Of a stretch of DNA of 64,000 bases, positions 9,935 to 64,000 are shown one piece after another. Source of the stretch: Branchiostoma floridae (lineage: Eukaryota > Chordata > Leptocardii > Amphioxiformes > Branchiostomatidae); the NCBI RefSeq assembly GCF_000003815.2, contig NC_049982.1:27857954-27921953 (forward strand), in the 5' to 3' direction. The position numbers and the translations under genes were made by a program. A model generated the notes under the pieces. That model was not told the origin of the DNA and ran no database searches. It saw nothing but the letters and a program-made list of their open reading frames with translations. The stretch's first letter is position 1, and each line of letters starts with the position of its first letter.

Positions 9935-10360
9935 CTAAAAGGGTGTGGACATCACTTTTCTCAACACGAGTTTGTGCTCTGGCGGTTTCTGTTGGGACTG
10001 CAGCACCAGCATCAGGTCGGTCATCTGCAGCGTGTCCTTCCGGGACTGGCTGCTCTTGATGGTAGAGTTTCTGGCGGCAGTGAAGCGGGTGGTGGAAATC
10101 GTGGAGGCGGCGCGCTTGCGTCCTCGCCCGCTAAGCGTACGGACCAGGGCGCTACGGAACTTGGAGGAGACGAGCGTGTAGAGGACGGGGTTGAGGGTTG
10201 AGTTGAGGTACACAAGGGTGCGGATGAACACCACGAACGATCCCACCAGTTCGGCGTCGATGTTTTCGTTGGTGGTGAGGAGTAGCCAGGTCTGGAGAAC
10301 GCGGTGTGGAGTCAGACAGACGAAAAACAGCGCCACCACTGAGATCAGCATGTGCACCAC
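9935..10360 (-). CDS. GPCR exon 4: TM6, TM7 and C-terminal tail
   Basis: Acceptor tttgtcag|GTGGTG at 10360, phase 0. Encodes residues 263-403: TM6 with CLTP, TM7 with NPVLY, then a Ser/Thr/Arg-rich cytoplasmic tail. TAG stop at 9937-9935. Confidence 0.9.
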   Translation of the reverse strand: MVHMLISVVALFFVCLTPHRVLQTWLLLTTNENIDAELVGSFVVFIRTLVYLNSTLNPVLYTLVSSKFRSALVRTLSGRGRKRAASTISTTRFTAARNSTIKSSQSRKDTLQMTDLMLVLQSQQKPPEHKLVLRKVMSTPF

Positions 10361-20381: not shown

Positions 20382-23300
20382 ATATATACACACACACACA
20401 CGGACATGAACAAACAAACAAACGAACACACGTCCACGGCCTTACTAGCCCACAAAGCCTCCTTCCTTAGTCCTCCAGCAAGACAAATAAAACTGAGTTA
20501 TTTTTTTTTCTAATCCATCATTGACACGGCGTGCAAAATTCGCACACACTATTAATGACAGCATTTTCTACGTGTCAGACATGCCAACGCGGCATTTCAT
20601 GCTGAAAATAAGAACATTTGAGGACTGCCTGTAATCGGCGTGAGATAAGCTTCTTATATTAGATCACTCACACTTATCACTTCTCCGCAGTTGGCAATTG
20701 TATAGTTGAATCATCGTGAGACCTTTTAAAAAGCACGACCCGATTGCTCCTTAACATTCTGTCCACCCATCGTATCTTAATGGAAATCGTGGTTGTAAAT
20801 GGACTTCTTCCTGATATTCGTATTTCAAACTATACAAAATCCGTAATGTTTAAAGATTGATCGTATGTAGTCAGCACTCGCGCTGTGGTGAATATAAGAA
20901 AGTTAGTGCACTCTACCCTACTCTATTCCAAAGTGCACTACGTATACCGATCTACTCTACTCTACTCTAAACTACTCTGCTCTATTCTACACTACTCTAC
21001 TTTGTTCTGATCTAATCTGCTCCGACCAACTTTACACCTCTAGCTCTCTGCTCTGCTCTACTCTGCTCTACTCTACCCTTCACTACTGTAAACTACTTTA
21101 CTCTGCTGTACTCTACTCTACTCTACTCTACTCTACTCTACTCTACTCTACTCTACTCTACTCTACTCTACTCTACTCTACTCTACTCTACTCTACTCTA
21201 CTCTACTCTACTCTACTCTTACTCTATTGCACGCTATGCTACACTAAGCTACTCTACTCTACTCTCTACTCTATATCTACACCACTCTACGTCACTTTAC
21301 GCCAACTCTATTCTACTCCACTTTTAGGGGCATCTACTCTGAACGAAAAATATGTTGCGTCCACAAATTGTGTTGCGTGATTTTAAGCGTTTTGGAGCTG
21401 GCTGCTACCAGTTAGCGTAACGTGAGGCTCACACGCTTTCGGTTCCAATTTCACGGCATTTTGAAATAACCGCAGTATAATCTCCCAACCAGCAAATTCA
21501 TTATCAATATTCTTTATGGCTAACATCACTATCTTTTGTTATACAGTATCACGCTGTCGGGGCTGATTGAGGAATAATTCTAACACGCAAAAATCATTCA
21601 CTCTCCTAAAGTCACCAATCGGAGCTCCGTTTTTCTAATCACATTGAAAATCAGTCCAATATGAGCTCTGGATTCCCTGTCACTCATACCTGCCACTATG
21701 TAAATCAATTGTCAGAGCCTATAACACTATGGAAACAGACAGTTGACAGTGTGATTAGATAGGTTCTTGTACTAAGCACAGTCACATATATATGCATAAA
21801 TCAACAGGGCTAGGAAGTTTCCAATTCATTTTTCACCATTTTTAAACATTCCTTTTACTATAAAAATCATTGCCTGTACTTAATGTTCCGGTCATTGACA
21901 ATTTTTTTTAAAACGTCCAGTCAAGTTTTAGCTGACTTAGTGTACGTGGATACAGTCCATACTATTAACTCATTGCTGCATATTATGTGATTTGTAGACA
22001 ACATTTCACCTTGATCAAGGTTAGTCATCTAGGTAATAAGATACGCCAAATGGCAGTTACCCATGGCAAGCAACTGGATATGATTTTAGAAAGCAAGGGA
22101 AATGTCCGTTATCAAAATACCCTGTCAACTGATGCATATCAAAATACATGTAATGGAGAGCCAGATACTGGCATTCAGCACAATAAGGTTATCTGATAAT
22201 TGTTAATGTACCCCCTTGCAATCTAATTTCCTTGAAAGTTATTTTCTGATACAAGTTTAGAGTGTCATGATCTCGTCCAAGAACTTTATAGGTCATAACA
22301 ACTCACCCCACACATACAGCATCTCGATATGTTGCGTGTCCAAATTTCAAGTGTAATCTAAACAATTTCTTGATGGTAGGTATAGGGTGTGTTGCACAAA
22401 GATTTGCATTCTGATCATATAAGTTCTGGATCATATTCCCTAGACGGATCCAGTTTTGTGCTTTGGGAAAGAAACAGGAAGTAAGATGACCTCGCCTGGA
22501 CCTTCGGCCTAACTCTCTGTCAGCGTTCACGACATGTTAATGTTAAACCGCATGTGAAGGGTGGCAACCTGACCTCAACTTTGACCTCCACTTCCTGTCT
22601 GTCTGTGGTTACCACCATTCACTTACTGCCATTCTAATTTAGACAGACACACAAGAAAACAGAGCTTTAGACACAACGAAAACAAAACGGAGAACATGAT
22701 AAGTAGATTCATAGTTTCAAACGCGTATGCGCATCGACATGCATTGTTGGTAATATGTCAAAGGTGAAGCCCCCCCCCCGGGAGACATAATTAAATTAAG
22801 CATCTATTGACATGTATTACGCATGGCTACACAGAAACAGTTAGCAAGCTAGGGGCCTTTGTCTTTAACATATTACCCTTAGTAGGTTGTCTGCGTGGAA
22901 AACGGCAGGGGCTTTGGAATCAGAATCAGTAGGTCCTGATCGATGAGTTCAATACTCGCCATGCTCCTGCCCCCATGACGGCGGAGTGGCGCCCACCGAG
23001 TCTCACGGCTAATCTGTTTTTTAAAAGGTGCCAAAAACACCTACGGGTTTGGTGCTGCCTCTGTGTCAACATCTGCACACTTGCCACTAACACCCGTTAA
23101 TTTTTTATTACCCATAGTGCATACCCATACGCACTTGGAAACATGTATATATATCTTCTCTTATACAGTGCATTGACTGATATGTACTATAAAGATGCAA
23201 TAACTCACACATGGTCTCGCCCAGGTACCAGGGGTAGACTATCCATGTGTCCATCAGTCCCACAGGCACACATATCAACAGGAACAGCAGGTCCGCCAAG

Positions 23301-23542
23301 CTCAGGTTCACTAGGAAGTAGTTGGTCGTTGTGCGCATGTCCAGACACCTCCACACGACCACGCACACCAGGATGTTTCCGGCCACGCCAACCGCGAAGA
23401 TGACACAGTAGAGGACAGTGACGGCTAGTCGGGCTGCCTCTGTCATGTCGGTGAAAACAGGGTCTAACCATTGAGGATCCGAGTCGTTCAAACTACAGTT
23501 ACGAATACAGTCTGTGGTGTCATTCACGCACGATGAATTCAT
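9935..23542 (-). CDS. Rhodopsin-class (class A) neuropeptide-type GPCR, four exons
   Basis: Join of 23542-23209, 12307-12099, 11119-10877 and 10360-9935, with junction phases 1, 0, 0. The joined frame has 404 codons including TAG, giving 403 residues, a typical class-A length. The N-terminus has four N-glycosylation sequons (N2, N7, N15, N19). TM1 contains GNILV and TM2 LADLLFLL. The conserved TM3 cysteine (C112) is split across the first junction. ERY lies at 136-138, the likely disulfide partner is C191, TM6 reads CLTP (277-280) instead of CWxP, and NPVLY lies at 319-323. TM3 (PYVELVV...LTIAAISVERYFAICRPL) suits the TRH receptor / ghrelin-motilin receptor / ecdysis-triggering-hormone receptor assemblage. 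The exact ligand cannot be named. Expected to be a plasma-membrane peptide receptor coupled to G proteins. Confidence 0.9.
10361..10876 (-). other. GPCR intron 3 (516 bp)
   Basis: Donor CAG|gtgcga and acceptor ttgtcag. It contains the hairpin element at 10664-10862. Confidence 0.85.
10664..10862. mobile_element. Hairpin (inverted-repeat) element with CCAAT/ATTGG motifs
   Basis: Two arms of roughly 90 bp, imperfectly complementary, around a short loop near 10755-10770. The inner arms are near-perfect: CGTCACATATTTGCATTCT and its complement. The outer arms repeat GTTGAACCAATGATAG-like sequence. The outer arm resembles the unit of the tandem array at 16779-17275 (ATTGGTTGAACAG, AATTGT). Looks like a foldback MITE. 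Confidence 0.75.
10877..11119 (-). CDS. GPCR exon 3: extracellular loop 2, TM5, intracellular loop 3
   Basis: Acceptor tcctacag|GTGGAAG and donor CGCCAG|gtgcga. 243 bases, phase 0 at both ends, residues 182-262. Carries the EL2 cysteine C191, the TM5 segment around TLLFLVFPLGLLCGLY, and a basic loop ending RRQ that joins VVHML of exon 4. Confidence 0.9.
11120..12098 (-). other. GPCR intron 2 (979 bp)
   Basis: Donor AAA|gtaagt and acceptor cctacag. Contains the TIR element at 11756-12018. Confidence 0.85.
11756..12018. mobile_element. TIR element (about 263 bp) inside GPCR intron 2
   Basis: The left end CCTACGCAGGGACATCCAAC and the right end GTTGTCCCTGCGTAGG are inverted copies. Complementarity continues for about 50 bp and includes GTACCCTGCTT/AAGCAGGGTAC. 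Noncoding. The target duplication is unclear because similarity continues a few bases beyond both ends. Confidence 0.8.
12099..12307 (-). CDS. GPCR exon 2: TM3 and TM4
   Basis: Acceptor ttccccacag|GCTACC (phase 1) and donor TTCAAA|gtaagt. Encodes residues 112-181. The first codon, completed by the T from exon 1, is the conserved TM3 cysteine. ERYFAICRPL follows TM3, then TM4 (LIWLLCLLLCSPVF). Confidence 0.92.
12535..12742. mobile_element. MULE-like MITE with 9-bp target duplication
   Basis: Almost entirely a foldback: the left end TAGCCTCTACCAGGCT and the right end AGCCTGGTAGAGGCTA are inverted, with complementarity continuing through ACGCTAGGGGAGTCA. GGCCGATTG lies directly outside both ends (12526-12534 and 12743-12751). 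Target duplications of 9-10 bp are typical of Mutator-like elements. Noncoding, 208 bp. Confidence 0.85.
13038..13349. mobile_element. TIR element with GGGTTCACACG ends, copy 1
   Basis: The left end reads GGGTTCACACGCGAGTATGT and the right end reverse-complements to GGGTTCACACGAGCG. ATTCAAATCCGT/ACGGATTTGAAT lies subterminally on both sides. The inner left arm (CCTCTACCAGGCTCCG, TAGAAATTGAAC) resembles the MULE-like element at 12535-12742, so the two are probably related. A longer relative is at 34012-34402. Confidence 0.8.
14095..14985. repeat. Tandem repeat of about 245 bp, three to four copies
   Basis: Each unit contains AAGTTTGAAAGTCCTAT (near 14347, 14590 and 14838), a CATTAATTATGCAAAT segment, GACGATCCGTCAACA and TATCTACATACCAAAAATCA. 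The region then grades into single-copy pieces (14985-15290) containing CTGCAGTTCCAAACAAGCCG, ending in an ACACACAGACAGACAGAC tail. Related pieces occur at 46060-46380 and, reversed, at 53220-53620. Confidence 0.75.
14986..15295 (+). mobile_element. 3' end of an interspersed repeat with (CA)/(CAGA) tail
   Basis: Contains CCAAATATCATCGGGATCCA and TTCTTGAGTTATGCTGTTAA, followed by ACACACACAGACAGACAGAC. A fixed end followed by a simple-sequence tail suggests a retroposed element; class not determined. Confidence 0.5.
15583..16487. mobile_element. TIR element, about 905 bp, with GGGGTCATTTTTGACCCC ends
   Basis: The left end GACCGTATGGGGTCATTTTT continues GACCCC and the right end is its inverted copy, giving about 28 bp of terminal inverted repeat. 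The inner 18 bp (GGGGTCATTTTTGACCCC) is itself a palindrome and occurs a third time, inverted, near 15771-15788. The interior is AT-rich and noncoding. No target duplication was identified, so the superfamily is open. Confidence 0.8.
16779..17275. repeat. 125-bp tandem repeat, four copies, CCAAT-rich
   Basis: Units begin near 16781, 16908, 17032 and 17158 with AACATTTGACGG, continue with CATTGGTCGAACC and CATTGGTTGAACAGCTAATT, and end GATAGACAAACTACTTTG. The CATTGGTTGAAC parts are shared with the hairpin at 10664-10862. Confidence 0.85.
18078..18114. repeat. (TTTC)n microsatellite
   Basis: About nine uninterrupted copies of the tetranucleotide CTTT. Confidence 0.97.
18120..18780. repeat. Diverged tandem repeat, about 150-180-bp period
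   Basis: Four units each contain an AACCGAATGACCTGAAATTT-like segment, a GGTCATTTTATGACCAAAA-like inverted motif and a GTACACTTTTGGCTC-like segment. The period varies. A related single segment is at about 38190-38300 (GGCCTAAAATTTGGCATAAA). Noncoding. Confidence 0.65.
18920..19240. repeat. Repeat with GGAAGAGTCCATTCTTAC units
   Basis: Three units of about 125-145 bp contain CTGGAAGAGTCCATTCTT, a G-rich piece (CACGGAGGGG) and TTTTTGGACTGGTC. A related copy occurs at about 51640-51840. Confidence 0.7.
19253..19607. mobile_element. PIF/Harbinger-type MITE, copy 2 (355 bp)
   Basis: Perfect 34-bp terminal inverted repeats beginning GGCCACACCAATTTAATTTC and ending with GGTTCACGGATT, flanked by TTA on each side (19250-19252 and 19608-19610). 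Closely related to 4855-5295 but lacks some internal sequence. Noncoding. Confidence 0.88.
20325..20401. repeat. (CA)n microsatellite
   Basis: Mostly pure CA dinucleotides, with a TACACATATATA interruption near 20376-20390. Open frames on both strands here are repeat by-products. Confidence 0.97.
20935..21340. repeat. (TCTAC)n microsatellite
   Basis: Degenerate pentanucleotide repeat with a pure core at about 21106-21218. Confidence 0.95.
23209..23542 (-). CDS. GPCR exon 1: N-terminus, TM1 and TM2
   Basis: Starts at the ATG at 23542 (MNSSCVNDTTDC...). The donor ATGT|gtgagt at 23208 leaves phase 1. Encodes a sequon-rich extracellular N-terminus, TM1 (LYCVIFAVGVAGNILVCVV), TM2 (FLVNLSLADLLFLLICVP) and the YPWYLGETMC run into TM3. 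No signal peptide is needed for this class. Confidence 0.9.
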
Positions 23543-24826
23543 CTTTTTTTTTTTAAATTTTTAAATTGATCATTCAAATGTCAAGAGTCTTAATGACTGT
23601 AAAGTTTCAAGATATTCCTCGTAAATTGCAAGTTTTCGTCTCTAAAAGTGTTCAATCTAACTTTAACTTCAATCAACTTGACTCCAGTAGTTTTCCTTTA
23701 CGTTGCCGTCCTACTGGAGTTACTACATGGTCACATCTTTTTTGCAACGTCTCAGGGACGAGCCAAATGGGTATTTTACAAGCTCCCAGGCCTATCCACA
23801 AATCTTTACTTCCTTCCTTCTACGACTTTCTTTCGAAAGCCAATGTTTGTCCATCAGAATGCAGCTTTTGTTAAAGTCGGAAAAGAGGACTAACTAAATA
23901 TTACGGGCGGGTTAGTGTCTGTCTGTTGGTCACGATGCTGTGTTGTCGTCCGATCTGACTTTATGACCTGTGAATATTAAAAATAAGCAACGTCAGTAAT
24001 GTAGCGTTTACATGGGAACATTCCAAATTTGACGCCCATTTCTTATTTGTTATGAAATACCTGGAAGTTTGAATTTGTTACCCTGTAATTTTCTCTTTAG
24101 TCGTGTAAATGTTTCTATCGGTATTTCTCTCTTTCTCCTTTACATAACAGTGTGTCACATGTTTGAGAGTCATACCATAGAACAGACTTATAGCAATTCG
24201 TCTTTCATTACAACTTATTTCCCTATGGAAATATGCCATTGATTGAATATATTTGAAGAATACGGGGGCGTTTTGGTAACTCCTGGCGTGCCAGGCATAC
24301 TACGTACCAAGTTCTGTATAGCTTCAAATGGCAGGACCCAACAGTACAATTGATGTAATGGTATTCATCGGTTAATATAAACCATAGTAAAATCCTGATT
24401 AATATCAGCCCTACGGCATCGGCTATGGTTAATCAGTGCTATTTGAGAGTTTCAGTTCTCGCCGTAAAATCCACGTCAGTAAACTGACTCAGTTTTGTAG
24501 CAAACTTTGCATACAAACTGTTATCTAGCACATTGTGACTGTCACCAAAATTGCTCAAGAGCAAATTCAGTGTATCATAGCATAACCCGTCCGTTTTGCT
24601 TGACATAACAGTTACTTCAGTATCTTCCTTGCAGGATCATATTTACCACCTGCAGAGAGGGGATTAAAACAAAACAACAAAATATAATCGGATAATCCGT
24701 TTTTAATTTTCATGATGTTTGTAATTTGAGAGATACAAATCACAACAATCTAGACGACATATGCATGCATAAAGAGGAAGTACATGTATCATATTCATTA
24801 ATGTTGGCACACATCCCTACACAAGG
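23543..24826. other. Upstream flank of GPCR exon 1
   Basis: No gene seen. An A-run lies directly before the start codon on the minus strand. Frames of 64-102 residues at 23566-23897 overlap in all three plus frames and have no domain. Confidence 0.5.
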
Positions 24827-39721: not shown

Positions 39722-40540
39722 TTAGGCGGATTTCTTCTGCTTGGACATTGGTGGTCCGAGCCCAGACAGGTTCATACCCATCTTCTCCTCGGCATATGCA
39801 ATGGCTTCCTCTAGGGGCATACCTTGGGCCATGGCTTGCCTTATCAGGGCCATCTTCTGTGAGGCGTAAGCAACGGCTTCTTCTCCGGACTTCCCTTGGG
39901 TCATCGCTTCCATTATCAGGGTCATAAAGTCGGGAGGAGGGGCATCGTCGGATTTCTTTTGCTTCTTGGACTGTGGTGGGCCGAGCATAGATGGATCTAT
40001 TCCCATGGCCTCCATCATCTTCCGGTTGACGTATGCAGCAGCTTCTTCTCCGGACATTCCTTGGGCCCTGGCTTCCGAGAACAGGGCCATGGCTTCAGGT
40101 GGAGGGGCATCGTCGGATTTCTTTTGCTTCTTGGACTGTGGTGGGCCGAGCATAGATGGATCTATTCCCATGGCCTCCATCATCTTCCGGTTGACGTATG
40201 CAGCAGCTTCTTCTCCGGACATTCCTTGGGCCCTGGCTTCCGAGAACAGGGCCATGGCTTCAGGTGGAGGGGCATCGTCGGATTTCTTTTGCTTCTTGGA
40301 CTGTGGTGGGCCGAGCATAGATGGATCTATTCCCATGGCCTCCATCATCTTCCGGTTGACGTATGCAGCAGCTTCTTCTCCGGTCATTCCTTGGGCCCTG
40401 GCTTCCGTGAACAGGGCCATGACTTCGGGAGGAGGGGCATCGCCAGGCGGCGGCGGAAGACCTCCATGCGGTGCGCCTTGGATGGAAACCGTTGCGACCA
40501 CCAACAGCAGTGCTGGAATAAGCTTCAACGACAACATCAT
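39722..40540 (-). CDS. Secreted tandem-repeat protein, candidate peptide precursor
   Basis: 272 residues from MMLSLKL to a TAA stop. Residues 1-22 are a clear signal peptide (hydrophobic IPALLLVVAT, likely cut near SIQG|APHG). After a proline-rich spacer come three 55-residue repeats (about 34-88, 89-143, 144-198), each holding DAPPPE, MALF, EARAQGM, GEEAAAYVNRKM, MEAMGIDPSMLGPPQ and SKKQKKS. A fourth, variant unit (199-272) looks like two half-repeats fused. There is no cysteine. RK and paired KK sites in each repeat could be prohormone-convertase cuts, but no Gly-Lys/Arg amidation site is seen. An acceptor tctcttttctgttcag lies just before AAGCCATG, so a 5' UTR exon is likely. The family is not recognised; a structural, non-processed secreted protein is the alternative. 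Confidence 0.85.
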   Translation of the reverse strand: MMLSLKLIPALLLVVATVSIQGAPHGGLPPPPGDAPPPEVMALFTEARAQGMTGEEAAAYVNRKMMEAMGIDPSMLGPPQSKKQKKSDDAPPPEAMALFSEARAQGMSGEEAAAYVNRKMMEAMGIDPSMLGPPQSKKQKKSDDAPPPEAMALFSEARAQGMSGEEAAAYVNRKMMEAMGIDPSMLGPPQSKKQKKSDDAPPPDFMTLIMEAMTQGKSGEEAVAYASQKMALIRQAMAQGMPLEEAIAYAEEKMGMNLSGLGPPMSKQKKSA

Positions 40541-40545
40541 GGCTT

Positions 40546-41213
40546 CTGAACAGAAAAGAGAGATACTGCTTTAGAACATACACTTTTCCGGACAGAAATA
40601 TTTAAGCTAACTCGTATCAGCGCGTGCACATGATGAAACTGGGGGTATGGTAAACTATAGTACAGAATATAGTAAGGTAGTGCAAACTATAGTAAGACAG
40701 TAAGTTAGACAATACAATACGTACTTTCAAATGGCCCTAAAACACGCCAGGGACTTTCTGTACTTGCCTCTCTGCAAATGTGGAGAAGAACACAGGCAAC
40801 TGCCCTCCTTTTATACCAGTCCTCGCCTCGCAACGCAGCTACGGGATTCTCAGAAAGAGTTTAATGATCAATTTTCTATTCCAGGTCAAATGAAATTACT
40901 GCATCCGGAGGTTTAAAAAATGATGCGGGTTATTTTGCTTTAATGGCGACTACGACACGCAGAATTCAAAATGAGCAATCGGTTTCATCTCAAGCGAGAA
41001 ATTACGGCAATATTTGGGGCTATATGCTACAAGGCTTATTCAAAATGGTTCTATATAAAACCATTTGCTGTTTGTCTTTGGATATGGGGATTTTCAGTTT
41101 TGTATTTGCGTTTTTTATATTTTGACGAGTATCAGAAACAACGGAGTTAAAAACTACTTAGTCGTAGAGAGAAAGCTTTAGGTCAATCTCAAAATAGGAA
41201 CATGAACCACACT
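40546..41213. other. Upstream flank of the repeat-protein gene
   Basis: Expected to contain the 5' UTR intron and promoter. GTACAGAATATAGTAAGGTA-type short repeats lie near 40660-40700. No further coding exon seen. Confidence 0.4.
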
Positions 41214-54468: not shown

Positions 54469-54789
54469 GACTTAAGGGTACTGCGTTCCACATTCAGTAA
54501 ATGATGGAGGAGAGACACGTGGAACTCCTTCGCAAGAATCGCGTGCAGATAGTAGATAATCTAGAATTTGATGACATTCGATACCATCTCGTTGACGCTG
54601 GGATCTTGAATGATCCTTGGCATCTTGACAGCATATACAGTTCTCGAACACGTGCAGATAAAGTCAGAGCTTTGCTAGACATTCTCCCGACCAGAGGACC
54701 AAAAGCATTCACGGTGTTTCTGGATGCCCTGAAGGACAGCTACCCTTACCTAGCTTGGATCTTGCAGGATGAAAGCCAAGAAGTAGAAG
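54469..54789 (+). CDS. Exon 1 (coding from 54501): CARD domain
   Basis: Acceptor ttcatcccatgtag ends at 54468; 5' UTR 54469-54500 ends with an in-frame TAA directly before the ATG, fixing the start at 54501 (or 54504, since two ATGs are adjacent). The donor GAAG|gtaatg gives phase 1. The six-helix CARD pattern is evident: RHVELLRKNRVQIVDNLEF, DAGILND, KVRALLDILPTRGPKAFTVF, and a final YLAWILQ. Confidence 0.88.
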
Positions 54790-57700
54790 GTAATGTAATC
54801 ACACATCCAACGTCTTCAGACTAAATCAAGCATATTACAGCAGATTTTACCGTTAGAAATATTGCCAACGGTGACAGTTAAGGATCTTGCTCTTTAATAC
54901 GTTTCGCGTTGTCCTTTATAATACTTAGTACATGCGTAAGCGCTAATATTATTACATAACAAACCGATGGTCTTACACTTGAAGGCGTTTAAAATTTATA
55001 TCCTAATAGATAGAATTAATTTTCTCTTAGAATCCTATCGTTTCTAATGTTTGAAAGCCCTATTCATGTACATAGCGTTAAATGATAACATGTTTTTACA
55101 TCCTCGTGTTTTCCTAGGACCACGTGTGTTCGTCATCCACGCAGGAGAAGACAAGGACTCATTTGTCCGCCCACTTGTCATCAACCTCCTACAACAGGGT
55201 TTAGCCGAGACAGACATTTTCTTTGATTACAGTTCCATCAAACCTGGTGACAACATCAGGGAGAGGATACTTTCAGCGCTATCAAGTCAAACTTTAGAAC
55301 TTGCTGTCGTTGTTGTCAGTTCATCATTACTTAACAAGCACTACTGGCCTAAATTTGAGTATGAAACATGTCTGCGAAAAAGGAAACGAATATTCCCCAT
55401 TTGGTTTGATGCAAACAATGACAACTTTAAGGCATTCAGTGAACAAGTCGGAGAGTACTCTCCCACATTGAAACAGCTCGTTGCGAGACGTGTGCAGAGA
55501 GACAATGTTCCTGCTGAGCTGCCAGGCATCGCTGCTGAGATCATACAGCAGCTCTCTCCTTTGGAAAGTGGCGTTTCGGACCCTGCAGGTTGGAAACAAT
55601 TGTATCATGTGTAACACAGCTATTTTATCACTTGCATGAAAAATAGAGTCGTTTGTGGTGTTGGTACGGCAGCAATTTTTCCCTTTTTTTGTATATGCCA
55701 TGGTCTTGTTTTTATAGGTGGCAGATACCTTTTAGTGTGGAGGAAAAGTAGCATAAATTTGAGTCCCCTAGCATCTAGCCCTGAAACTGTTTAAATATGT
55801 TTAAATATTTCAAGGATAACTGAACGAAGTATCGAAAATTCGGCATTTTTACTATAATAGTGAAACAACGAATTTTCTTGTTAATGGGCATTAAGGCATC
55901 CTAAGTGAGATGTACATACTAAGATGCAAATCATGAACATTTTTTGCATAGTCAATGAGGAACAGCTGTAATTCTAGTGCATTAGTAGAAAATGTAAAGC
56001 ATAAAATTTATGGCAAGAGGAACAATGACAGAGAGCAAATAAGGGTCTACCTTGCAGAATTAATGCAAAAGTGGCATAATTCTTTTTTGTCAAATAATAG
56101 CAATTACGTAGTTAACGAAGTTAGCTAAAGGTGTACACCTTTATGCGTAGATTATATGCGTTATTAATGAAACAAGACAAAAAAACTATAAATCTACAAA
56201 GGCTCTAAATTTTTCATATATGTATGAAGTCTGATAACTCTTTCTATTTTTGAAAGGTTCGCATGTGCCCATCGACCTACAAGGACCAGAGATGACAGAG
56301 TTGTATGTTAAAGCCTGTCGCGAGGGGTCGCTACCAGTACACAACACACGTGCCCAGGTGGTGGGTCAGTACAGGTCAGGGAAAACCTGCTTCATCAACA
56401 GGCTGATGGGAGAACCGGTCAGGCTGGACGAACCAATCACGGATGGGATCAATATCACACCTGATGTTCAAACCAAGGCATGGAAGCAGTCACGAGGTGA
56501 GGAAATAAAAAGGCGATGAAGACAATGTACTCTTTGCTGAAGTTTTAGTGTTGGGTATATTTTCTTTTGTTTTTAATTCTCATTCTCTTTCCAGTGGAGA
56601 TTGATGAGTTCGGCGCTGGAATGGCAGGGCTGCTGCTACAGTCGCGACAGGAAACTGAGACCTCGGCAGGTGATACAGAATCTCCATCAGGTAAATCTCT
56701 ATAAATTATGTACTGTACATGAGTGTGTGGTGTCCGTGTGGTAGTGGTAACGGTTGGAATAGATGTGCTGCTGCACATGGAAGATTGATGCACTTGCACA
56801 TGGAAGATTGAAGCTGATGTCATCCATATAATCAAGTCAAGTGTGGCCTTACCGATACGTTGATCAGGAACATCTAACTTAGATTGTGATGCAAGAACTT
56901 TGATGTGAATTACGAGGCTATTCACAGAACACATCTGACTTCCGTCATTAATCCGTATAATTTGTGTCATGGCAGAGGACGAGAGTTACGAGTCCGTTGT
57001 AACGACAAGTAGTTTGATGCCGCGAGAGGAGAAGTCCACAGAGTCACCTGCGACGACTTCATCAGATGATACTACACATCGTCTCGGCGAAAGCGAAAAG
57101 CTACAAGATACAGCAGAGGCGTCATTTCGACCGTCAGCAATTCCCAGCAGTGTCTCGGAGACCTTGAAGAGAATGCGGGATGCAGGCTTTTCGGAGGAAG
57201 ACCTTGGGACTGCGGAATACCCACGTTTGTCTTTCTGGGATTTCGGCGGCCAGGCGACTTACTATGGGACCCACCACTGCTTCATCACACACCTAGGAAT
57301 CTACATCCTCGTCATGTCTCTGCTGCAGAAACTGTCAGACCCTGTACCAAAACAGGACCACAAGGCTTCCGTGGACAACCTGAAAACAGGAGGGGGTACG
57401 TACTAGAAGAGGATACTACTTTATAGATACATGTCACACGCGTACATCTTACTAAATTAAAACGCGTATGCATCCTTGTATTGTATTTCATGGCATTATA
57501 TTGGATTGCATTATTGTACTGAATGGCATATGTCGTATTGTTGCATTCAATGGTGTCTTTTTGTTCAGATTACTTGGACCACTGGCTCAACTCAATTCGC
57601 TCTCACACTCAGCATCAAAACACAAGAAAGCCTCCAGCCATCCTCGTCCTCACGCACAAAGACATGGTCTCTCAGGTGAGGTTATCACCTTCGTGAAAAA

Positions 57701-60432
57701 TGGAGTTAGTATTGTATGTCTCTATCTCTCTGCGTGTGCTTGTCTCTGTTTGTATGTGTCTTTGCGTGTGTTTGCATTACGGATTTTTGCTGTCACTATA
57801 ACTGTACAGTGTCTAGAAGGATATTATTTTATTTGTTAGGTTTTAAAAAGACGATGGTCAAGGTCGATTTTGGACCTGCCAGTGGGTGATCTTGAAAATG
57901 CAGCAAAACTACGCTGTTTTTGTCTTTGACATGCTGTAGTCTTTTTTTTGTGGCAAATGTCAGAAATAAGAAGTGCAAGTTTGGGCCTCCAAGAAGATTT
58001 TCTGAGCTACAGGGGCGTTTGGTTTAAATCATACAGAGAGGATAACTGAACAGAGGATCCACTAATTTCCATGACATGTATTTGAGAAACCATTGCCTTT
58101 ACATGATGTATTTTGGAGTACATCTAGACGGTTTGAACAACCGAAAAGGAATCAATTCGACCATATATTGAACTTAGCCTGTTACATACTGGTATCCTGG
58201 AAACAAGTTGTTTGTTACAATTAGTGTAGTAATTACAGCAATTTTATCGGTGTTCTACAGAAAGACATTGAGGACTACAAAGAAGAGATATGGAACCACA
58301 TCAAGGGAAAGGCGGCAGGAAAGCTGGTCATGCCAGAAATATTCGCAGTGGACAACACAACTGATGACTCAGAAATTAACAACATTCGTGAGTACATCCG
58401 AGAGGTGGTGAAAACCCTGCCCCACATGGGCGAGGAAATCCCCATATCGTGGCTTCATCTCAAGTCTAAACTGAAGAAACAGCTACAGGAGGGAGGTCCG
58501 TTTTGCGACTTCCAACAAGTTGCGAAACTGGCCCGTGATCCCAACATCAACATCACAGACGAGCACACACTCGCCATGGTTCTTACATTCCTCCACGATC
58601 GAGGTGACATCATCTTCTTAGACGAACCCAGTCTTCGCGATGATGTCACCCTGCGGCCACAGGTGATGATTGACGTCTTCAAGACCATCATCACAGTTCC
58701 CGAGTATCAGCAACACAGGCAGACGGACCCAGAAGTAAGGAAGATGTGGGAGAGGCTGGAAAAGGAAGGAGTCCTCAGCGACAAGTTGCTGACAAGGATC
58801 TGGGAAGAGAAGGATCAGCAACTGGAAAGGCCATTTCTGGTCCAGCGCAAGACTTTCCTGAAGAACCTGATGGAGAAGTACTATCTGCTCTGCAACGCCA
58901 CCTTCGTCGGTGATGGTGATGGTGATGACGAATCTCAACAGGAAGAGATGTATTTCGTACCCGCACTTCTCAACTGCGAGAGAAACAACGAGATGCTGTA
59001 TCCCAGCGAAACGAATCGTTTCCCACAGGCACTCTACTTCGTGTTCAGCGAGAAGTTTCTTCCCAGTGGCATGTTCAGCCGACTACAAGCTTTGTGCGTT
59101 CGCAGGTTTGGACTTGCAAAGTCTTGCGTCTATGCGGGTTGCGCACGCTTCCCTACCGACAACAACAAGCAATCGTTCGTCGTCTCAAAGGTGAACCACT
59201 ACCTGAAGGTGGAGCTTCTGTCGTCTTCTGACGCCTTCACAGAAGGTCTGAGCGTCAGGAAGTTTCTCAGCAGCGCCCTGTTTGAGATCAAAGAGAAATG
59301 GATCCCCTGTATCCAGTACAAGCTGTGTTGCTGTAAACAACATGACGACAGAAAAGAACCAGACTTCCTGGCATTGGCCACAGATGACGGGGCACTGGAA
59401 CAGGATTCAGGGTACGATCACTGAATGCTATCATTTATGAAGAATGACAAAGACATTGAATTTATTGCTCGAAATGTATGTCATGAAATAGGATGATGTC
59501 TATTCTGTATAGTACAAGCAGAATTTCATTGGAGAGCATTCAGTTTAAAGCGAATCAGTTTCATCTACAAGTCCATATGTGGACCAGCGGCAAATATGAC
59601 ATAATCAGCTGTTCAATTTATACATTATTTGGCAAAGTTATGAGATTTTGGAACTTTTGTTTACCATTAACTTGGCGAGCGACTACAACCGAAACTTGAA
59701 TTGAAATCAACTTATACTAACTGACTGTATGTACCTTTTTCTTACCAGAATACCATCTGCATTTCGTGACGTTTGGATGACTGGTAGCTCACAACCTGAT
59801 CGAACAGGTAACTCAACCTATTTGAGTACATAGCGTACGACTTTTTTTATATAGGAACTAGATTTAGGTTTTCTGTTAGTAACAAATAAAGCTCATATTT
59901 TACATGATAAGAGTAAGCAGATTCTACAATGTTTCTATCTTCTTCATTTGAATCTTAATTGGTCAATCGGTGCAAATTAGCATATAGGCACGCATAATGA
60001 TTTGCTCAACCAAGGTCTATCATTCTTAAGCGCTGTTTTTATTCGCTATCTATAATAGACCATGCCAACATTTGTTTATTTATCTTCTGTGTGTCCATAA
60101 TACGGCACTATGCTGTTACCTTGCATTTCCTTCCTCAATTCATATTCATATGAGAAATTTAAATGTACCAGAAAACTCAGGAGGAGACGGCCCAGTGATA
60201 CTGTTGCCTACGGGAGACCCTAGCAGCATGCGAACGATCGGCCCCGTCTTGGACACTATGGAGCTGGGGACAGGACTGTCGCTGGACCAGTGTGACCGCA
60301 CTCGGAACCAGCTGACGCCAAAACAGCGGGTCCAGGTGCTGGTGCGGCTAGTAGAAAACCGCTACCTGTTGGGAGCCGCCGTGGAGATGTGCTGTCCAGA
60401 GTTTATGGATTGCTTCTTGAGGGAAGAACGAG
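54501..60432 (+). CDS. CARD-TIR-Roc-COR multidomain protein (nine exons seen, 3' end beyond window)
   Basis: Join of 54501-54789, 55118-55588, 56257-56496, 56595-56690, 56976-57395, 57569-57675, 58261-59411, 59749-59807 and 60172-60432. All junctions agree in phase (mostly 1), giving at least 1031 residues. CARD (about 2-92) opens with HVELLRKNR and has LLDILPTRGPKAF. TIR (about 98-250) has VFVIHAGEDKDSF, the BB-loop-like DYSSIKPGDNI, and WPKFE with E177 at the W+4 position. Roc has P-loop GQYRSGKT (290-297), DFGGQ (454-458) and THKD (534-537), with a Ser/Thr/Glu-rich insert of more than 100 residues between the first two. COR follows (about 560-910). Roc-COR proteins are GTP-dependent dimerising switches; CARD and TIR link to innate immunity or cell death. 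The combination was not recognised as a named gene. Confidence 0.88.
55118..55588 (+). CDS. Exon 2: TIR domain
   Basis: Acceptor tgttttcctag|GACCAC and donor CCTGCAG|gttgga, phase 1 at both ends. Encodes residues 97-253, a complete TIR domain on one exon. Box-1-like VFVIHAGEDKDSFV, BB loop SSIKPGDNI, and SSSLLNKHYWPKFEYETCL containing the W-x-x-x-E spacing used by the catalytic glutamate of SARM1 and plant TIRs. Confidence 0.9.
55589..56256 (+). other. Intron 2 of the CARD-TIR-ROCO gene
   Basis: GT-AG, 668 bases, AT-rich, no repeat recognised. Confidence 0.8.
56257..56496 (+). CDS. Exon 3: start of Roc GTPase, P-loop
   Basis: Acceptor tttttgaaag|GTTCGC and donor CACGAG|gtgagg, phase 1 at both ends. 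Contains AQVVGQYRSGKTCFINRLMG, a full Walker A motif of Roc type. The exon ends soon after a TDGINITP segment typical of the Roc switch-I region. Confidence 0.88.
56595..56690 (+). CDS. Exon 4: Roc linker
   Basis: Acceptor tctctttccag|TGGAG and donor CATCAG|gtaaat. 96 bases, phase 1 at both ends, 32 codons (VEIDEFGAGMAGLLLQSRQ followed by an acidic Ser/Thr segment). Too short for long-frame detection; supported by splice sites and phase. Confidence 0.75.
56976..57395 (+). CDS. Exon 5: acidic insert and Roc switch II
   Basis: Acceptor tgtcatggcag|AGGACG (weak pyrimidine tract) and donor GGGGG|gtacgt placed so that phase 1 is kept. The first ~55 codons are a Ser/Thr/Glu-rich low-complexity insert. 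LSFWDFGGQATYYGTHHCFI then carries the DFGGQ switch-II motif diagnostic of Roc. Confidence 0.85.
57569..57675 (+). CDS. Exon 6: Roc base-recognition motif
   Basis: Acceptor ctttttgttcag|ATTACT and donor CTCTCAG|gtgagg; enters in phase 1 and leaves in phase 0. Encodes DYLDHWLNSIRSH, then PPAILVLTHKDMVSQ. THKD is the G4 (N/T-K-x-D) motif. Confidence 0.85.
57676..58260 (+). other. Intron 6 of the CARD-TIR-ROCO gene
   Basis: GT-AG, 585 bases. The frames extending from exon 6 across its donor are read-through of the intron. Confidence 0.8.
58261..59411 (+). CDS. Exon 7: end of Roc and COR domain
   Basis: Acceptor atcggtgttctacag ends at 58260, phase 0. Long open exon: LPHMGEEIPISWLHLKSKLK marks the COR start, and TLAMVLTFLHDRGDIIFL is the COR winged-helix-like segment. 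A further half includes YFVPALLNCERNN and KFLPSGMFSRLQALC. A donor TCAGG|gtacga after 59411 allows splicing onward in phase 2. If it is not used, translation ends at TGA 59422-59424 after DSGYDH. Confidence 0.9.
59749..59807 (+). CDS. Exon 8: short linker after COR
   Basis: Acceptor ccttttcttaccag|AATACC and donor CGAACAG|gtaact. 59 bases, entering in phase 2 and leaving in phase 1 (IPSAFRDVWMTGSSQPDRT). Supported by good splice sites and frame only. Confidence 0.6.
60172..60432 (+). CDS. Exon 9: C-terminal extension
   Basis: Acceptor aatgtaccag|AAAACTC and donor GAACGAG|gtatgt, phase 1 at both ends. Encodes GPVILLPTGDPSSMRTIGPV and a helical-looking part, TPKQRVQVLVRLVENRYLLG ... CPEFMDCFLREERG. 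The domain is not recognised. Since the donor is good, more exons are expected beyond the satellite. Confidence 0.65.
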
Positions 60433-60585: not shown

Positions 60586-63500
60586 TTCCAAAATTCAAAC
60601 AAAATGTGCGTTACTTTCAACACTTAACTTTTCTACATACGAATCAAGGGTCACCCGGGGGGTAACCGCTAACCGCTAAGCGAACCATTCGGTAACCGCA
60701 AAAAAAGCGACCCCTTACGATCGGACTTCCGAAATTTCAAACAAAATGTGCGTTACTTTCAACACTTAAATATCATAGTAATACACTTGGGGAATAGATA
60801 GAAAGTGATTTGATTACCCAAAATTACTTTGTAACTTTTCTACATACAAATAAAGGCTCACCCGCGGGGTAATAGCTAACCGCCAAGCGAACCTTTAGGT
60901 AACCGCAAGAAAGCGACCCCTAACGATCGGACTTCCGAAATTTCAAACAAAATGTGCGTTACTTTCATTACTTAAATATCACAGTAATACAATTGGGGAA
61001 TAGATAGAAAGTGATTTGAGTACCCAAATTACTTTGTAATTTTTCTACATAAGAATGAAGGCTCACCCGCGGGGTAACCGCTAACCGCTAAAAAAACCCT
61101 TCGGTAACCGCAAAAAAGCGACCCCTTACGATCGGACTTCCGAAATTTCAAACAAAATGTGCGTTACTTTCAACACTTAAATATCATAGTAATACACTTG
61201 GGGAATAGATAGAAAGTGATTTGAGTACGCAAAATTACTTTGTAACTTTTCTACATACGAATGAAGGCTCACCCGGGGGGTAACCGCTAACCGCTAAGCG
61301 AACCCTTCGGTAAACGCATAAAAGCGACCCCTTAAGATCGGACTTCCGAAATTCAAACAAAATGTGCATTACTTTCAACACTTAAATATCATAGAAATAC
61401 AGTTGGGGAATAGATAGAAAGTGATTTGAGTACCCAAAATTACTTTGTGACTTTTCTACATTGGATTGAAGGCCCACCCGAGGGGTAACCGCTAACCGCT
61501 AAGCGAACCCTTCGGTAACCGCAAAAAAGCGACCCCTTACGATCGGACTTCCGAAATTTCAAACAAAATGTGCGTTACTTTCATTCCTTAAATATCACAG
61601 TAATACACTTGGGGAAAAGATAGAAAGTGATCTGAGTACGCAAAATTACTTTGTAACTTTTCTAAATACGAATGAAGGCTCACCCGCGGGGTAACCGCTA
61701 ACCGCCAAGCGAACCCTACGGTAACCGCAAAAAAGCGACCCCTTAAGATCGGACTTCCGAAATTTCAAACAAAATGTGCGTTACTTTCATTACTTAAATA
61801 TCATAGTAATACACTTGGGGAATAGATAGAAAGTGATTTGAGTACCCAAAATTACTTTGTAACTTTTCTACATACGAATGAAGGCTCACCAAGGGGGTAA
61901 CCGCTAACCGCTAAAAAACCCTTCGGTAACCGCAAAAAGGCGACCCCTTACGACCGGACTTCCGAAATTTCAAACAAAATGTGCGTTACTTTCAACACTT
62001 AGATATCATAGTAATACACTTGGGGAATAGATAGAAAGTGATTTGAGTACCCAAAATTACTTTGTAACTTTTCTACATACGAATAAAGGCTCACCGGGGG
62101 GTAACCGCTAACCGCTAAAAAACCCTTCGGTAACCGCAAAAAGGTGACCCCTTACGATCGGACTTCCGAAATTTCAAACAAAATGTGCTTTACTTTCAAC
62201 ACTTATATATCATAGTTATACACTTGGGGAATAGATAGAAAGTGATCTGAGTACGCAAAATTATTTTGTAACTTTTCTTCTTACGAATGAAGGCTCACCC
62301 GGGTGGTAACCGCTAACCGCTAAGCGAACCCTACGGTAACCGCTAAAAAGCGACCGGTCGACCCTTTACGATCGGACTTCCAAAATTTCAAACAAAATGT
62401 GCGTTACTTTCAACACTTAAATATCATAGTAATACACTTGGGGAATAGATAGAAAGTGATTTGAGTACCCAAAATTACTTTGTAACTTTTATACATACGA
62501 ATGAAGGCTCACCCGCGGGGTAACCGCTAACCGCCAAGCGAATCCTTCGGTAACCACAAAAAAGCGACCCCTTACGATCGGACTTCCAAAATTTCAAACA
62601 AAATGTGCGTTACTTTCAACACTTAAATATCATAGTGATACACTTGGGGAATAGATAGAAAGTGATTTTATTACCCCAAATTACTTTGTAACTTTTCTAC
62701 ATACAAATGAAGGCTTACCCGCGGGGTAATAGCTAACCGCCAAGCGAACCTTTAGGTAACCGCAAAAAGGCGACCCCTAACGATCGGACTTCCGAAATTT
62801 CAAACAAAATGTGCGTTTCTTTCACACTTAAATATCATAGTTAATACACTTGGGGAATAGATAGAAAGTGATTTGAGTACCCAAAATTACTTTGTAACTT
62901 TTCTACATACGAATTAAGGCTCTCCCGCGGGGTAACCGCTAACCGCTAAAAACCCTTCGGTAACCGCAAAAAGGCGACCCCTTACGATCGGACTTCCGAA
63001 ATTTGAAACAAAATGTGCGTTACTTTCAACACCTCAATATCATAGTAATACACTTGGGGAATAGATAGAAAGTGATCTGAGTACGCAAAATTACTTTGTA
63101 ACTTTTCTACTTACGAATGAAGGCTCACCCGGGGGGTAACCGCTAACCGCTAAAAAACCCTTCGGTAACCACAAAAATGCGACCCCTTACGATCGGACTT
63201 AGGAAATTTCAAATAAAATGTGCGTAACTTTCATTGCTTAAATATCGTAGTAATAAACTTGGGGAATAGATAGAAAGTGATCTGAGTACGCAAAATTTCT
63301 TTGTAACTTTTCTACATACGAATGAAGGCTCACCCGGGGGTAACCGCTAACCGCTAAAAAACCCTTCGGTAACAGCAAAAAAGCGACCCCTTACGATCGG
63401 ACTTCCGAAATTTCAGACAAAATGTGCGTTACTTTCAACACTTAGATATCATAGTAATACACTTGGGGGATAGATAGAAAGTGATTTGAGTACCCAAAAT

Positions 63501-64000
63501 TACTTTGNNNNNNNNNNNNNNNNNNNNNNNNNNNNNNNNNNNNNNNNNNNNNNNNNNNNNNNNNNNNNNNNNNNNNNNNNNNNNNNNNNNNNNNNNNNNN
63601 NNNNNNNNNNNNNNNNNNNNNNNNNNNNNNNNNNNNNNNNNNNNNNNNNNNNNNNNNNNNNNNNNNNNNNNNNNNNNNNNNNNNNNNNNNNNNNNNNNNN
63701 NNNNNNNNNNNNNNNNNNNNNNNNNNNNNNNNNNNNNNNNNNNNNNNNNNNNNNNNNNNNNNNNNNNNNNNNNNNNNNNNNNNNNNNNNNNNNNNNNNNN
63801 NNNNNNNNNNNNNNNNNNNNNNNNNNNNNNNNNNNNNNNNNNNNNNNNNNNNNNNNNNNNNNNNNNNNNNNNNNNNNNNNNNNNNNNNNNNNNNNNNNNN
63901 NNNNNNNNNNNNNNNNNNNNNNNNNNNNNNNNNNNNNNNNNNNNNNNNNNNNNNNNNNNNNNNNNNNNNNNNNNNNNNNNCCCTTCGGTAACCGCAAAAA
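60575..64000. repeat. 206-bp satellite array
   Basis: About fourteen visible copies plus whatever fills the gap. Each unit contains GGGTAACCGCTAACCGCTAA, GCGACCCCTTACGATCGGAC, TTCAAACAAAATGTGCGTTA, TACACTTGGGGAATAGATAG and CCAAAATTACTTTGTAACTT. The GATCGGACTTCC landmark recurs about every 206 bases from 60718 on. The first unit (60579) is shortened to about 139 bp. Copies differ by a few percent and fall into variants such as TTGAGTACCC versus CTGAGTACGC. The last 20 bases after the gap are again satellite. Confidence 0.97.
63508..63980. other. Assembly gap (473 N) within the satellite
   Basis: Run of N flanked by satellite on both sides. The size may be an estimate; 473 is about 2.3 repeat units. 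Confidence 0.99.

What the first reader, a model, noticed from the sequence alone, without database searches (positions are those of the whole stretch)
54501..60432. One gene joins CARD, TIR and a Roc-COR GTPase
Seen: nine phase-compatible exons give an open chain with CARD, TIR, a Roc domain with all three readable nucleotide-binding motifs (GQYRSGKT, DFGGQ, THKD) and COR. Known: CARD and TIR are homotypic or signalling domains in innate immunity; ROCO proteins (LRRK, DAPK1, MASL1 types) are GTP-regulated dimers usually paired with LRR, ankyrin, kinase or Death domains. Inference: a GTP-gated immune or cell-death switch in which Roc-COR dimerisation could bring TIR domains together and CARD could recruit a caspase or adaptor. 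I do not recognise this order as a named vertebrate gene.
Basis: partly seen in the sequence, partly recalled or inferred. Interest (0 to 1): 0.88.

Follow-up and report, generated by a model that had tools for sequence, protein, structure and literature searches.

The report
Shuffled CARD-TIR cassette on Roc-COR GTPase
A lancelet-like genome carries a gene, apparently assembled from mix-and-match exons, that joins two immune and cell-death signalling domains to a GTP-driven switch, and it probably continues well beyond the stretch examined.

Summary
Nine phase-compatible GT-AG exons (54501-60432) give an open 1031-aa chain; Pfam finds CARD (1e-17), TIR_2 (8e-9), Roc (1e-9) and COR-A (6e-11), all above cut-off.

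One gene is the better reading. In 8 of 10 fetched paralogs the TIR exon is followed by an in-phase acceptor, and all 18 strong copies of exon 9 lie within 4 kb behind a COR hit. Against it: the exon 2 donor is weak, with a stop close behind.

The gene looks like a fusion in a phase-1 intron. Exons 1-2 resemble a CARD-TIR cassette found elsewhere before TRADD-N-like, NB-ARC or AIG1 sequences; exons 3-9 belong to a Roc-COR family. Of 87 listed COR places, only this one has a listed TIR upstream within 40 kb. The TIR resembles AbTIR, an NAD+ hydrolase, and keeps the aligned glutamate.

The gene probably continues outside the window, past a minisatellite, with a second TIR-like exon, Death, FIIND and Death.

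TIR_2 with Roc-COR is already reported in sea anemones, Aplysia and bacteria: a new variant of a known kind. No transcript was available.

The parts
54504..54789 (+). Exon 1, CARD; conserved start at the second ATG (54504); in-frame TAA at 54498-54500; donor phase 1
   Evidence: Pfam CARD 1e-17; ATGGA in 8 of 8 CARD paralogs examined
55118..55588 (+). Exon 2, TIR_2-type TIR, symmetric 1-1 exon; WPKFE with glutamate codon at 55357-55359; weak donor GTTGGA
   Evidence: Pfam TIR_2 7.9e-9; profile matches to 7 TIR chains at 4e-14 to 2e-11; glutamate aligned; DNA identity to paralogs stops near the exon ends
56257..56496 (+). Exon 3, start of Roc with P-loop GQYRSGKT; 1-1 exon
   Evidence: 64-69% identical exon in 6 of 6 close Roc-COR paralogs read (L049, L050, L054-L057)
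56595..56690 (+). Exon 4, between the G2 and G3 motifs of Roc; 1-1 exon
   Evidence: splice phases; weak matches in 2 of those 6 paralogs, L056 and L057
56976..57395 (+). Exon 5, rest of the G2-G3 stretch plus DFGGQ; 1-1 exon
   Evidence: 53-64% identical exon in 6 of 6 of those paralogs
57569..57675 (+). Exon 6, THKD (G4) motif
   Evidence: disturbed in L056
58261..59411 (+). Exon 7, end of Roc and COR; alternative stop at 59424 if not spliced
   Evidence: Pfam COR-A 6.2e-11; dN/dS 0.20-0.28 against 5 paralogs; GT donor at the same place in 6 of 6 paralogs
59749..59807 (+). Exon 8, short linker exon
   Evidence: GT-AG, phase-compatible; a 47% identical stretch between COR and exon 9 in L061 (E 0.007); no convincing match in the other fetched paralogs, most of which do not cover the interval
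60172..60432 (+). Exon 9, conserved domain without Pfam match; donor phase 1 leads out of the window
   Evidence: 17 other strong copies, 44-89% identical; all 18 within 4 kb downstream of a COR hit
60625..63507 (.). 206-bp minisatellite, 14.0 copies, inside the presumed intron 9

Best explanation
One gene of a large lancelet-type Roc-COR (AP-GTPase) family whose 5' end was replaced or extended by a recurrent CARD-TIR exon cassette, by recombination in a phase-1 intron. Most likely mechanism: a cytosolic immune or cell-death platform. Roc-COR changes oligomeric state with its nucleotide; this crowds the N-terminal CARD-TIR heads, so that the bacterial-type TIR becomes active as an NAD+ hydrolase or cyclase and the CARD recruits a CARD caspase or adaptor. 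The presumed C-terminal TIR-like, Death and FIIND modules outside the window add further docking. Shown: exon chain, domains, cassette and family copies, low dN/dS. Inferred: that the exons are spliced together, GTP gating, TIR catalysis, CARD partner, immune role.
For: Domains over cut-off. In 8 of 10 fetched loci with a homologous TIR exon an in-phase acceptor (exon starting AIQT) follows 0.2-0.65 kb on; in the other two the next domain recognised is NB-ARC or AIG1. Of 6 close Roc-COR paralogs read, other adaptor domains lie upstream in 3: tandem CARD (L054), CARD (L055), DED-like plus Death (L056). The window CARD exon matches cassette CARDs at 52-57% in 8 of 10 loci and gave no match at E<=0.05 in L054/L055. 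Exons 2-5 are all symmetric 1-1. No AATAAA or ATTAAA in introns 1 and 2. The COR-exon donor is kept in 6 of 6 paralogs; exon 9 follows COR in 18 of 18 places. dN/dS 0.20-0.47 for TIR, exon 3, COR and exon 9. The TIR profile hits 7 TIR chains at 4e-14 to 2e-11, AbTIR NAD+ hydrolase among them, with W-x-x-x-E aligned.
Against: No transcript or protein was available, also for the paralogs. The exon 2 donor (GTTGGA) is weak, and reading on gives a stop after GWKQLYHV, so a CARD-TIR-only product is possible. The fusion is seen at one locus in one assembly. CARD dN/dS against L052 is 0.84, and several CARD and exon 9 comparisons have synonymous distances above 1.5. Introns 3, 5 and 8 each hold one AATAAA or ATTAAA. 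A glutamate in WxxxE is no proof of catalysis: TLR TIRs can carry it too (recalled). The AlphaFold model of the TIR had mean pLDDT 49.6 and was not used.
Confidence: 0.66

Rival explanations
1. Two neighbouring genes: a two-exon CARD-TIR gene ending just after exon 2 (GWKQLYHV stop) and a separate Roc-COR gene whose first exon was missed.
For: Weak exon 2 donor. In 8 of 10 paralogs a stop codon comes within 3 codons of the same G|GT. At the other places listed, cassette-type TIR and COR are not found in this order within 40 kb.
Against: In 8 of 10 paralogs an in-phase acceptor of a further conserved exon follows. Introns 1 and 2 hold no AATAAA or ATTAAA. Exon 3 has a homologous phase-1 acceptor in the two paralogs inspected for it, and adaptor domains lie upstream of exon 3 in 3 of 6 paralogs. 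The two ORFs of over 50 aa inside intron 2 have no Pfam match over cut-off (best VHS, E 0.0017).
Confidence: 0.13
2. Assembly chimera: cassette and Roc-COR sequences from different loci were joined by misassembly.
For: Both parts belong to multi-copy families, and only one listed locus shows the fusion.
Against: No N between 36666 and 63507. Neither half is a near-identical copy of another locus: best other matches are 75-77% (TIR) and 72% (COR). Splice phases match across the joint.
Confidence: 0.06
3. The TIR is only a docking module and the gene works as a MyD88-like adaptor with a GTPase scaffold, without NAD+ turnover. This overlaps with the gene model above and differs only in the output.
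For: The family's second TIR-like exon lacks the glutamate at the aligned position in 12 of 12 sequences, so TIR-like domains seem to be kept here without catalysis.
Against: The N-terminal TIR matches AbTIR and similar chains, and no SARM1 or TLR chain at E<=10 except two Toll-receptor-related 2 chains near E=1. The glutamate is invariant in 11 of 11 aligned cassette-type TIR exons.
Confidence: 0.4

Closest known systems
Sea-anemone novel genes NG1 (LRR, Roc/Ras GTPase, low-threshold COR, TIR_2) and NG3 (kinase, Roc-COR, Death, TIR), PMC5094078 (passages read)
   Same: TIR or TIR_2 and Roc-COR in one animal protein
   Different: No CARD named; different domain set
Aplysia ROCO-containing TLR, MyD88-like and TIR proteins, PMC9334734 (passages read)
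   Same: Roc-COR with TIR, in MyD88-like ones also Death-like
   Different: LRR, MBT or EF-hand partners in the TLRs; no CARD in the passages seen
Bacterial AP-GTPase (Roc-COR) conflict systems with TIR and other effectors, PMC8195603 (passages read)
   Same: GTPase switch plus COR with a variable effector that can be TIR
   Different: LRR N-terminal and effector C-terminal; here CARD-TIR is N-terminal
DAPK1 and MASL1/MFHAS1 (domain layouts recalled; human ROCO list from the PMC3995007 abstract start)
   Same: Roc-COR; DAPK1 ends in a Death domain
   Different: No CARD or TIR; kinase, ankyrin or LRR instead
Lancelet shuffled genes: CARD+AIG1 (PMC12373286), TIR-NACHT and TIR-NB-ARC-WD40 (PMC2575513); passages read
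   Same: Shuffling of CARD, TIR and NTPase modules in lancelets
   Different: The word Roc had no hit in either paper
NLRP1/CARD8 FIIND proteins, PMC3210808 (abstract start in search listing only)
   Same: FIIND domain, here outside the window
   Different: Roc-COR instead of NACHT; no SF in the two FIIND-matching exons as I delimited them

Membership tests
ROCO / Roc-COR proteins | Roc GTPase domain followed by COR | tested here: met
   Roc 1.2e-9 and COR-A 6.2e-11, both over cut-off, in that order
ROCO / Roc-COR proteins | readable nucleotide-binding motifs | tested here: met
   GQYRSGKT, ITDGI, DFGGQ, THKD; in the aligned paralogs the P-loop is kept in 6 of 6 and THKD in 6 of 7, not in L056
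ROCO / Roc-COR proteins | GTP binding and dimerisation | not testable with these tools
   needs protein
CARD | Pfam CARD over cut-off | tested here: met
   64.3 bits against 23.9; RAIDD 4.4e-8 and caspase-9 0.0012 among PDB matches
Bacterial-type catalytic TIR (NADase) | TIR_2 similarity and W-x-x-x-E glutamate | tested here: met
   bacterial origin of most matched chains is recalled, the tables give molecule names only
Bacterial-type catalytic TIR (NADase) | NAD+ hydrolysis | not testable with these tools
   needs assay
DAPK1/LRRK/MASL1 orthologue | kinase, ankyrin or LRR next to Roc-COR | tested here: not met
   none found in the 1031-aa chain
TLR or MyD88 adaptor | TLR-type TIR (PF01582) over cut-off | tested here: not met
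   PF01582 15.1 bits, below 21.3
FIIND protein (downstream, outside window) | FIIND over cut-off | tested here: met
   2.6e-15 and 4.1e-7 in two exons; the link to the window exons rests on paralogy and phase, not on a transcript
FIIND protein (downstream, outside window) | SF/S autocleavage motif | tested here: inconclusive
   no SF in the two exons as I delimited them; the one SF that one search reports lies before the acceptor. Cleavage untested; no PDB match to check against

The most novel reading that the evidence does not exclude
A single ~35-kb gene encodes CARD, catalytic TIR, Roc-COR, a new conserved domain (exon 9), a pseudo-TIR, Death, FIIND and Death: a GTP-switched, NAD+-consuming platform made by swapping a CARD-TIR cassette onto a Roc-COR scaffold. 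It would belong to a modular lancelet system in which the same effector cassette is mounted on STAND ATPases, AIG1 GTPases or Roc-COR GTPases.
Probability: 0.3. Interest if true: 0.82.

Novelty: new variant of a known kind. Interest (0 to 1): 0.62.

Why it matters
If true, one effector cassette (CARD plus bacterial-type TIR) is attached at the same phase-1 position to different nucleotide switches within one genome. That makes the idea of interchangeable effector and switch modules in animal immunity directly testable. It also links Roc-COR GTPases, known mainly from Parkinson's disease (LRRK2) and DAPK1, to TIR and CARD signalling in a chordate, and suggests how TIR enzymes could be gated by GTP.

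Tried and rejected
Exon 9 as a second CARD: three weak hits to tandem-CARD exons (E 0.47-0.88), but profile comparison gave probability 0.5%, Pfam none, and a single-sequence AlphaFold model (mean pLDDT 60.9) had no Foldseek match better than E=2.9. Rejected; left as an unnamed domain.

AlphaFold of the TIR exon alone: mean pLDDT 49.6, not used.

Prokaryote genome-contig scan with the TIR alignment: 23 pattern matches, none confirmed.

PDB search with the joined FIIND exons: no match at E<=1.

Homology of intron 2 to the fetched paralog loci, to locate the breakpoint: no match at E<=1e-3.

ORFs inside intron 2 as a missed first exon: no Pfam match over cut-off.

Paper searches for hyphenated order names gave 5 unrelated papers. 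Huang 2008 (PMC2493400) is not held, so a description of this gene there cannot be excluded.
Full report
Observation. All eight introns are GT...AG (98-668 bases), the phases fit, and the chain is open for 1031 residues. Pfam places CARD (1e-17), TIR_2 (7.9e-9), Roc (1.2e-9) and COR-A (6.2e-11) in that order, each above its cut-off. PDB sequence matches agree: RAIDD (4.4e-8) and caspase-9 (0.0012) for the CARD, AbTIR and similar TIR chains (from 4e-10) for the TIR, and a leucine-rich-repeat protein chain (4wnr, 2.1e-12) and LRRK2 (from 8e-5) for Roc-COR.

Source. The window is part of a 513-Mb assembly with 431 contigs.

One gene or two. This was the main doubt, because CARD-TIR and Roc-COR also occur separately. 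Among 87 COR places (84, 3 added) and 156 TIR places (145, 11 added), the window is the only one with a listed TIR upstream of a COR on the same strand within 40 kb; three others have a TIR 5-34 kb downstream. The lists are lower bounds: 150 of 179 TIR candidates and 45 of 333 protein candidates were scored, and PF01582-type TIRs were not searched.

The TIR exon elsewhere. I fetched 10 loci with a 68-77% identical TIR exon; a homologous CARD exon lies upstream in 8 of them, not in L042 and L048. In 8 of the 10 an in-phase acceptor and an exon starting AIQT follow 0.2-0.65 kb on; one copy of that exon was scanned and resembles TRADD-like N only weakly (E 0.095, below cut-off). In the other two the next domain recognised is NB-ARC (6.8e-7, L042) or AIG1 (5.6e-11, L051). 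I read this as a phase-1 donor at the end of the TIR exon, with the stops close behind it (within 3 codons in 8 of 10) being intron sequence. No transcript confirms it. The window donor GTTGGA is weak, so a CARD-TIR-only form is possible.

The Roc-COR part elsewhere. Six close paralogs were read (L049, L050, L054-L057); more distant COR loci (L001-L008, L059) were not used for this. All six have homologues of exons 3, 5, 6 and 7, exon 6 being disturbed in L056. All six keep a GT donor where window exon 7 ends, and five read GTAAG there. Upstream lie a tandem CARD (3e-38) in L054, a CARD (3.7e-18) in L055, and DED-like (3.9e-8, below cut-off) plus Death (6.8e-16) in L056; nothing was identified in L049, L050 and L057. 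The window CARD exon matches cassette CARDs at 52-57% and gave no match at E<=0.05 in L054 or L055, so exons 1 and 2 probably came together. Exons 2 to 5 are all symmetric 1-1 exons, the pattern expected for exon shuffling.

Coding constraint. dN/dS (Nei-Gojobori) is 0.22-0.47 for the TIR (5 comparisons), 0.27-0.38 for exon 3 (5), 0.20-0.28 for COR (5) and 0.21-0.41 for exon 9 (2). For the CARD it is 0.20-0.43 in three comparisons and 0.84 in one; some CARD and exon 9 comparisons are near saturation. DNA identity stops near the predicted exon ends. Introns 1 and 2 hold neither AATAAA nor ATTAAA; introns 3, 5 and 8 hold one each. The two ORFs of over 50 aa in intron 2 have no Pfam match over cut-off.

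The gene goes on. Exon 9 has 17 further strong copies (E<=1.2e-8; 18 of 21 rows with the window's own), 44-89% identical, and all 18 lie within 4 kb downstream of a COR hit. Exon 8 has a likely homologue between COR and exon 9 in L061 (47%, E 0.007). In 16 of the 17 others a second TIR-like exon follows within 2 kb. In the window gene that exon lies 23 kb further on (C4:27941522, window-equivalent 83569) in the same phase, behind a 206-bp minisatellite that begins at 60625. Next, on the same strand, come a Death domain (4.7e-9), two FIIND exons (2.6e-15, 4.1e-7), a weak UPA-FIIND piece (0.048) and another Death domain (5.3e-18). The second TIR-like exon is related to the first by profile comparison (probability 96.5, E 8.9e-10), although Pfam does not call it in the window gene. 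At the aligned glutamate position it has T, A, D or G in 12 of 12 sequences. Using the 32 stronger of 48 FIIND rows, FIIND lies downstream of 3 of the 17 other exon-9 copies within 30 kb and of 20 of 87 COR places within 10 kb. That the downstream exons belong to the window gene rests on paralogy and phase, not on a transcript.

What it may do. The profile of the N-terminal TIR matches seven TIR chains at 4e-14 to 2e-11, AbTIR NAD+ hydrolase among them; no SARM1 and no TLR chain appears at E<=10 except two Toll-receptor-related 2 chains near E=1. WPKFE aligns with WTNYE of AbTIR, and the glutamate is invariant in 11 of 11 aligned exons. The simplest mechanism is a nucleotide-switched scaffold that brings CARD-TIR heads together. 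That Roc-COR proteins change oligomer state with nucleotide is taken from titles and abstract starts of work on a homologous Roco protein (PMC5714945, PMC11052575; listing). Whether this TIR cleaves NAD+ is open; I give about even odds.

What is known. TIR_2 with Roc-COR is reported in sea anemones, where COR was a low-threshold match in NG1, with further TIR_2-GTPase combinations in oyster, Trichoplax and bacteria (PMC5094078, passages), in Aplysia (PMC9334734, passages), and as bacterial AP-GTPase systems with TIR among the effectors (PMC8195603, passages). Lancelet shuffling of TIR, CARD, NACHT, NB-ARC and AIG1 is reported (PMC2575513 and PMC12373286, passages), and TIR_2 and Death are enriched among dispensable lancelet genes (PMC12373286). 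I found no description of CARD-TIR-Roc-COR, but only openly licensed papers are held and Huang 2008 could not be read.

Verdict. Real, better explained as one gene than as two, probably larger than described, and a new variant of a known kind. The interest lies in the cassette logic and in the possible GTP-gated TIR enzyme.

Noticed in passing
window 60625-63507 and L045-L046: 206-bp minisatellite, 14.0 copies in the window; similar repeat ORFs and N gaps continue beyond it. Exon 9 is 23 kb from the next exon here, against under 1 kb in 16 paralogs.
   Followed up: partly
L039, L040, L041, L043, L044 (C12), L053 (C14): CARD-TIR genes, most in an array on C12, each followed by a TRADD-N-like exon; a further conserved exon (WESYAEEYL or WEGYAEEYL and the like) is seen in L039, L040, L044 and L053.
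   Followed up: partly
C3:31.9-33.3 Mb and C191 of the same assembly: Clusters of COR hits with FIIND hits a few kb downstream on the same strand: a second Roc-COR-FIIND expansion.
   Followed up: no
L042 (C8:16334000-16343000): TIR exon of the cassette type followed by a 1198-aa open frame with NB-ARC.
   Followed up: partly
L050 1071-2273: Reverse-transcriptase-like open frame upstream of the Roc exon of a paralog (by eye).
   Followed up: no
window 9938-11251 (-) and 23111-23560 (-): Pieces of rhodopsin-type GPCR genes (7tm_1 3.2e-8, 4.7e-4 below cut-off, and 2.2e-14).
   Followed up: no
window 39725-40570 (-): Open frame with a signal-peptide-like start (by eye) and near-identical internal repeats; best Pfam match SAM_2 3.2e-5 over the whole protein, no single stretch passing.
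   Followed up: no
window 2134-2847 (+): Leucine-rich-repeat-like open frame, below Pfam cut-offs.
   Followed up: no
L049 3-530 (sense strand): Coding-looking open frame upstream of a Roc-COR paralog; its first 137 residues have no Pfam match. A possible further N-terminal module.
   Followed up: no
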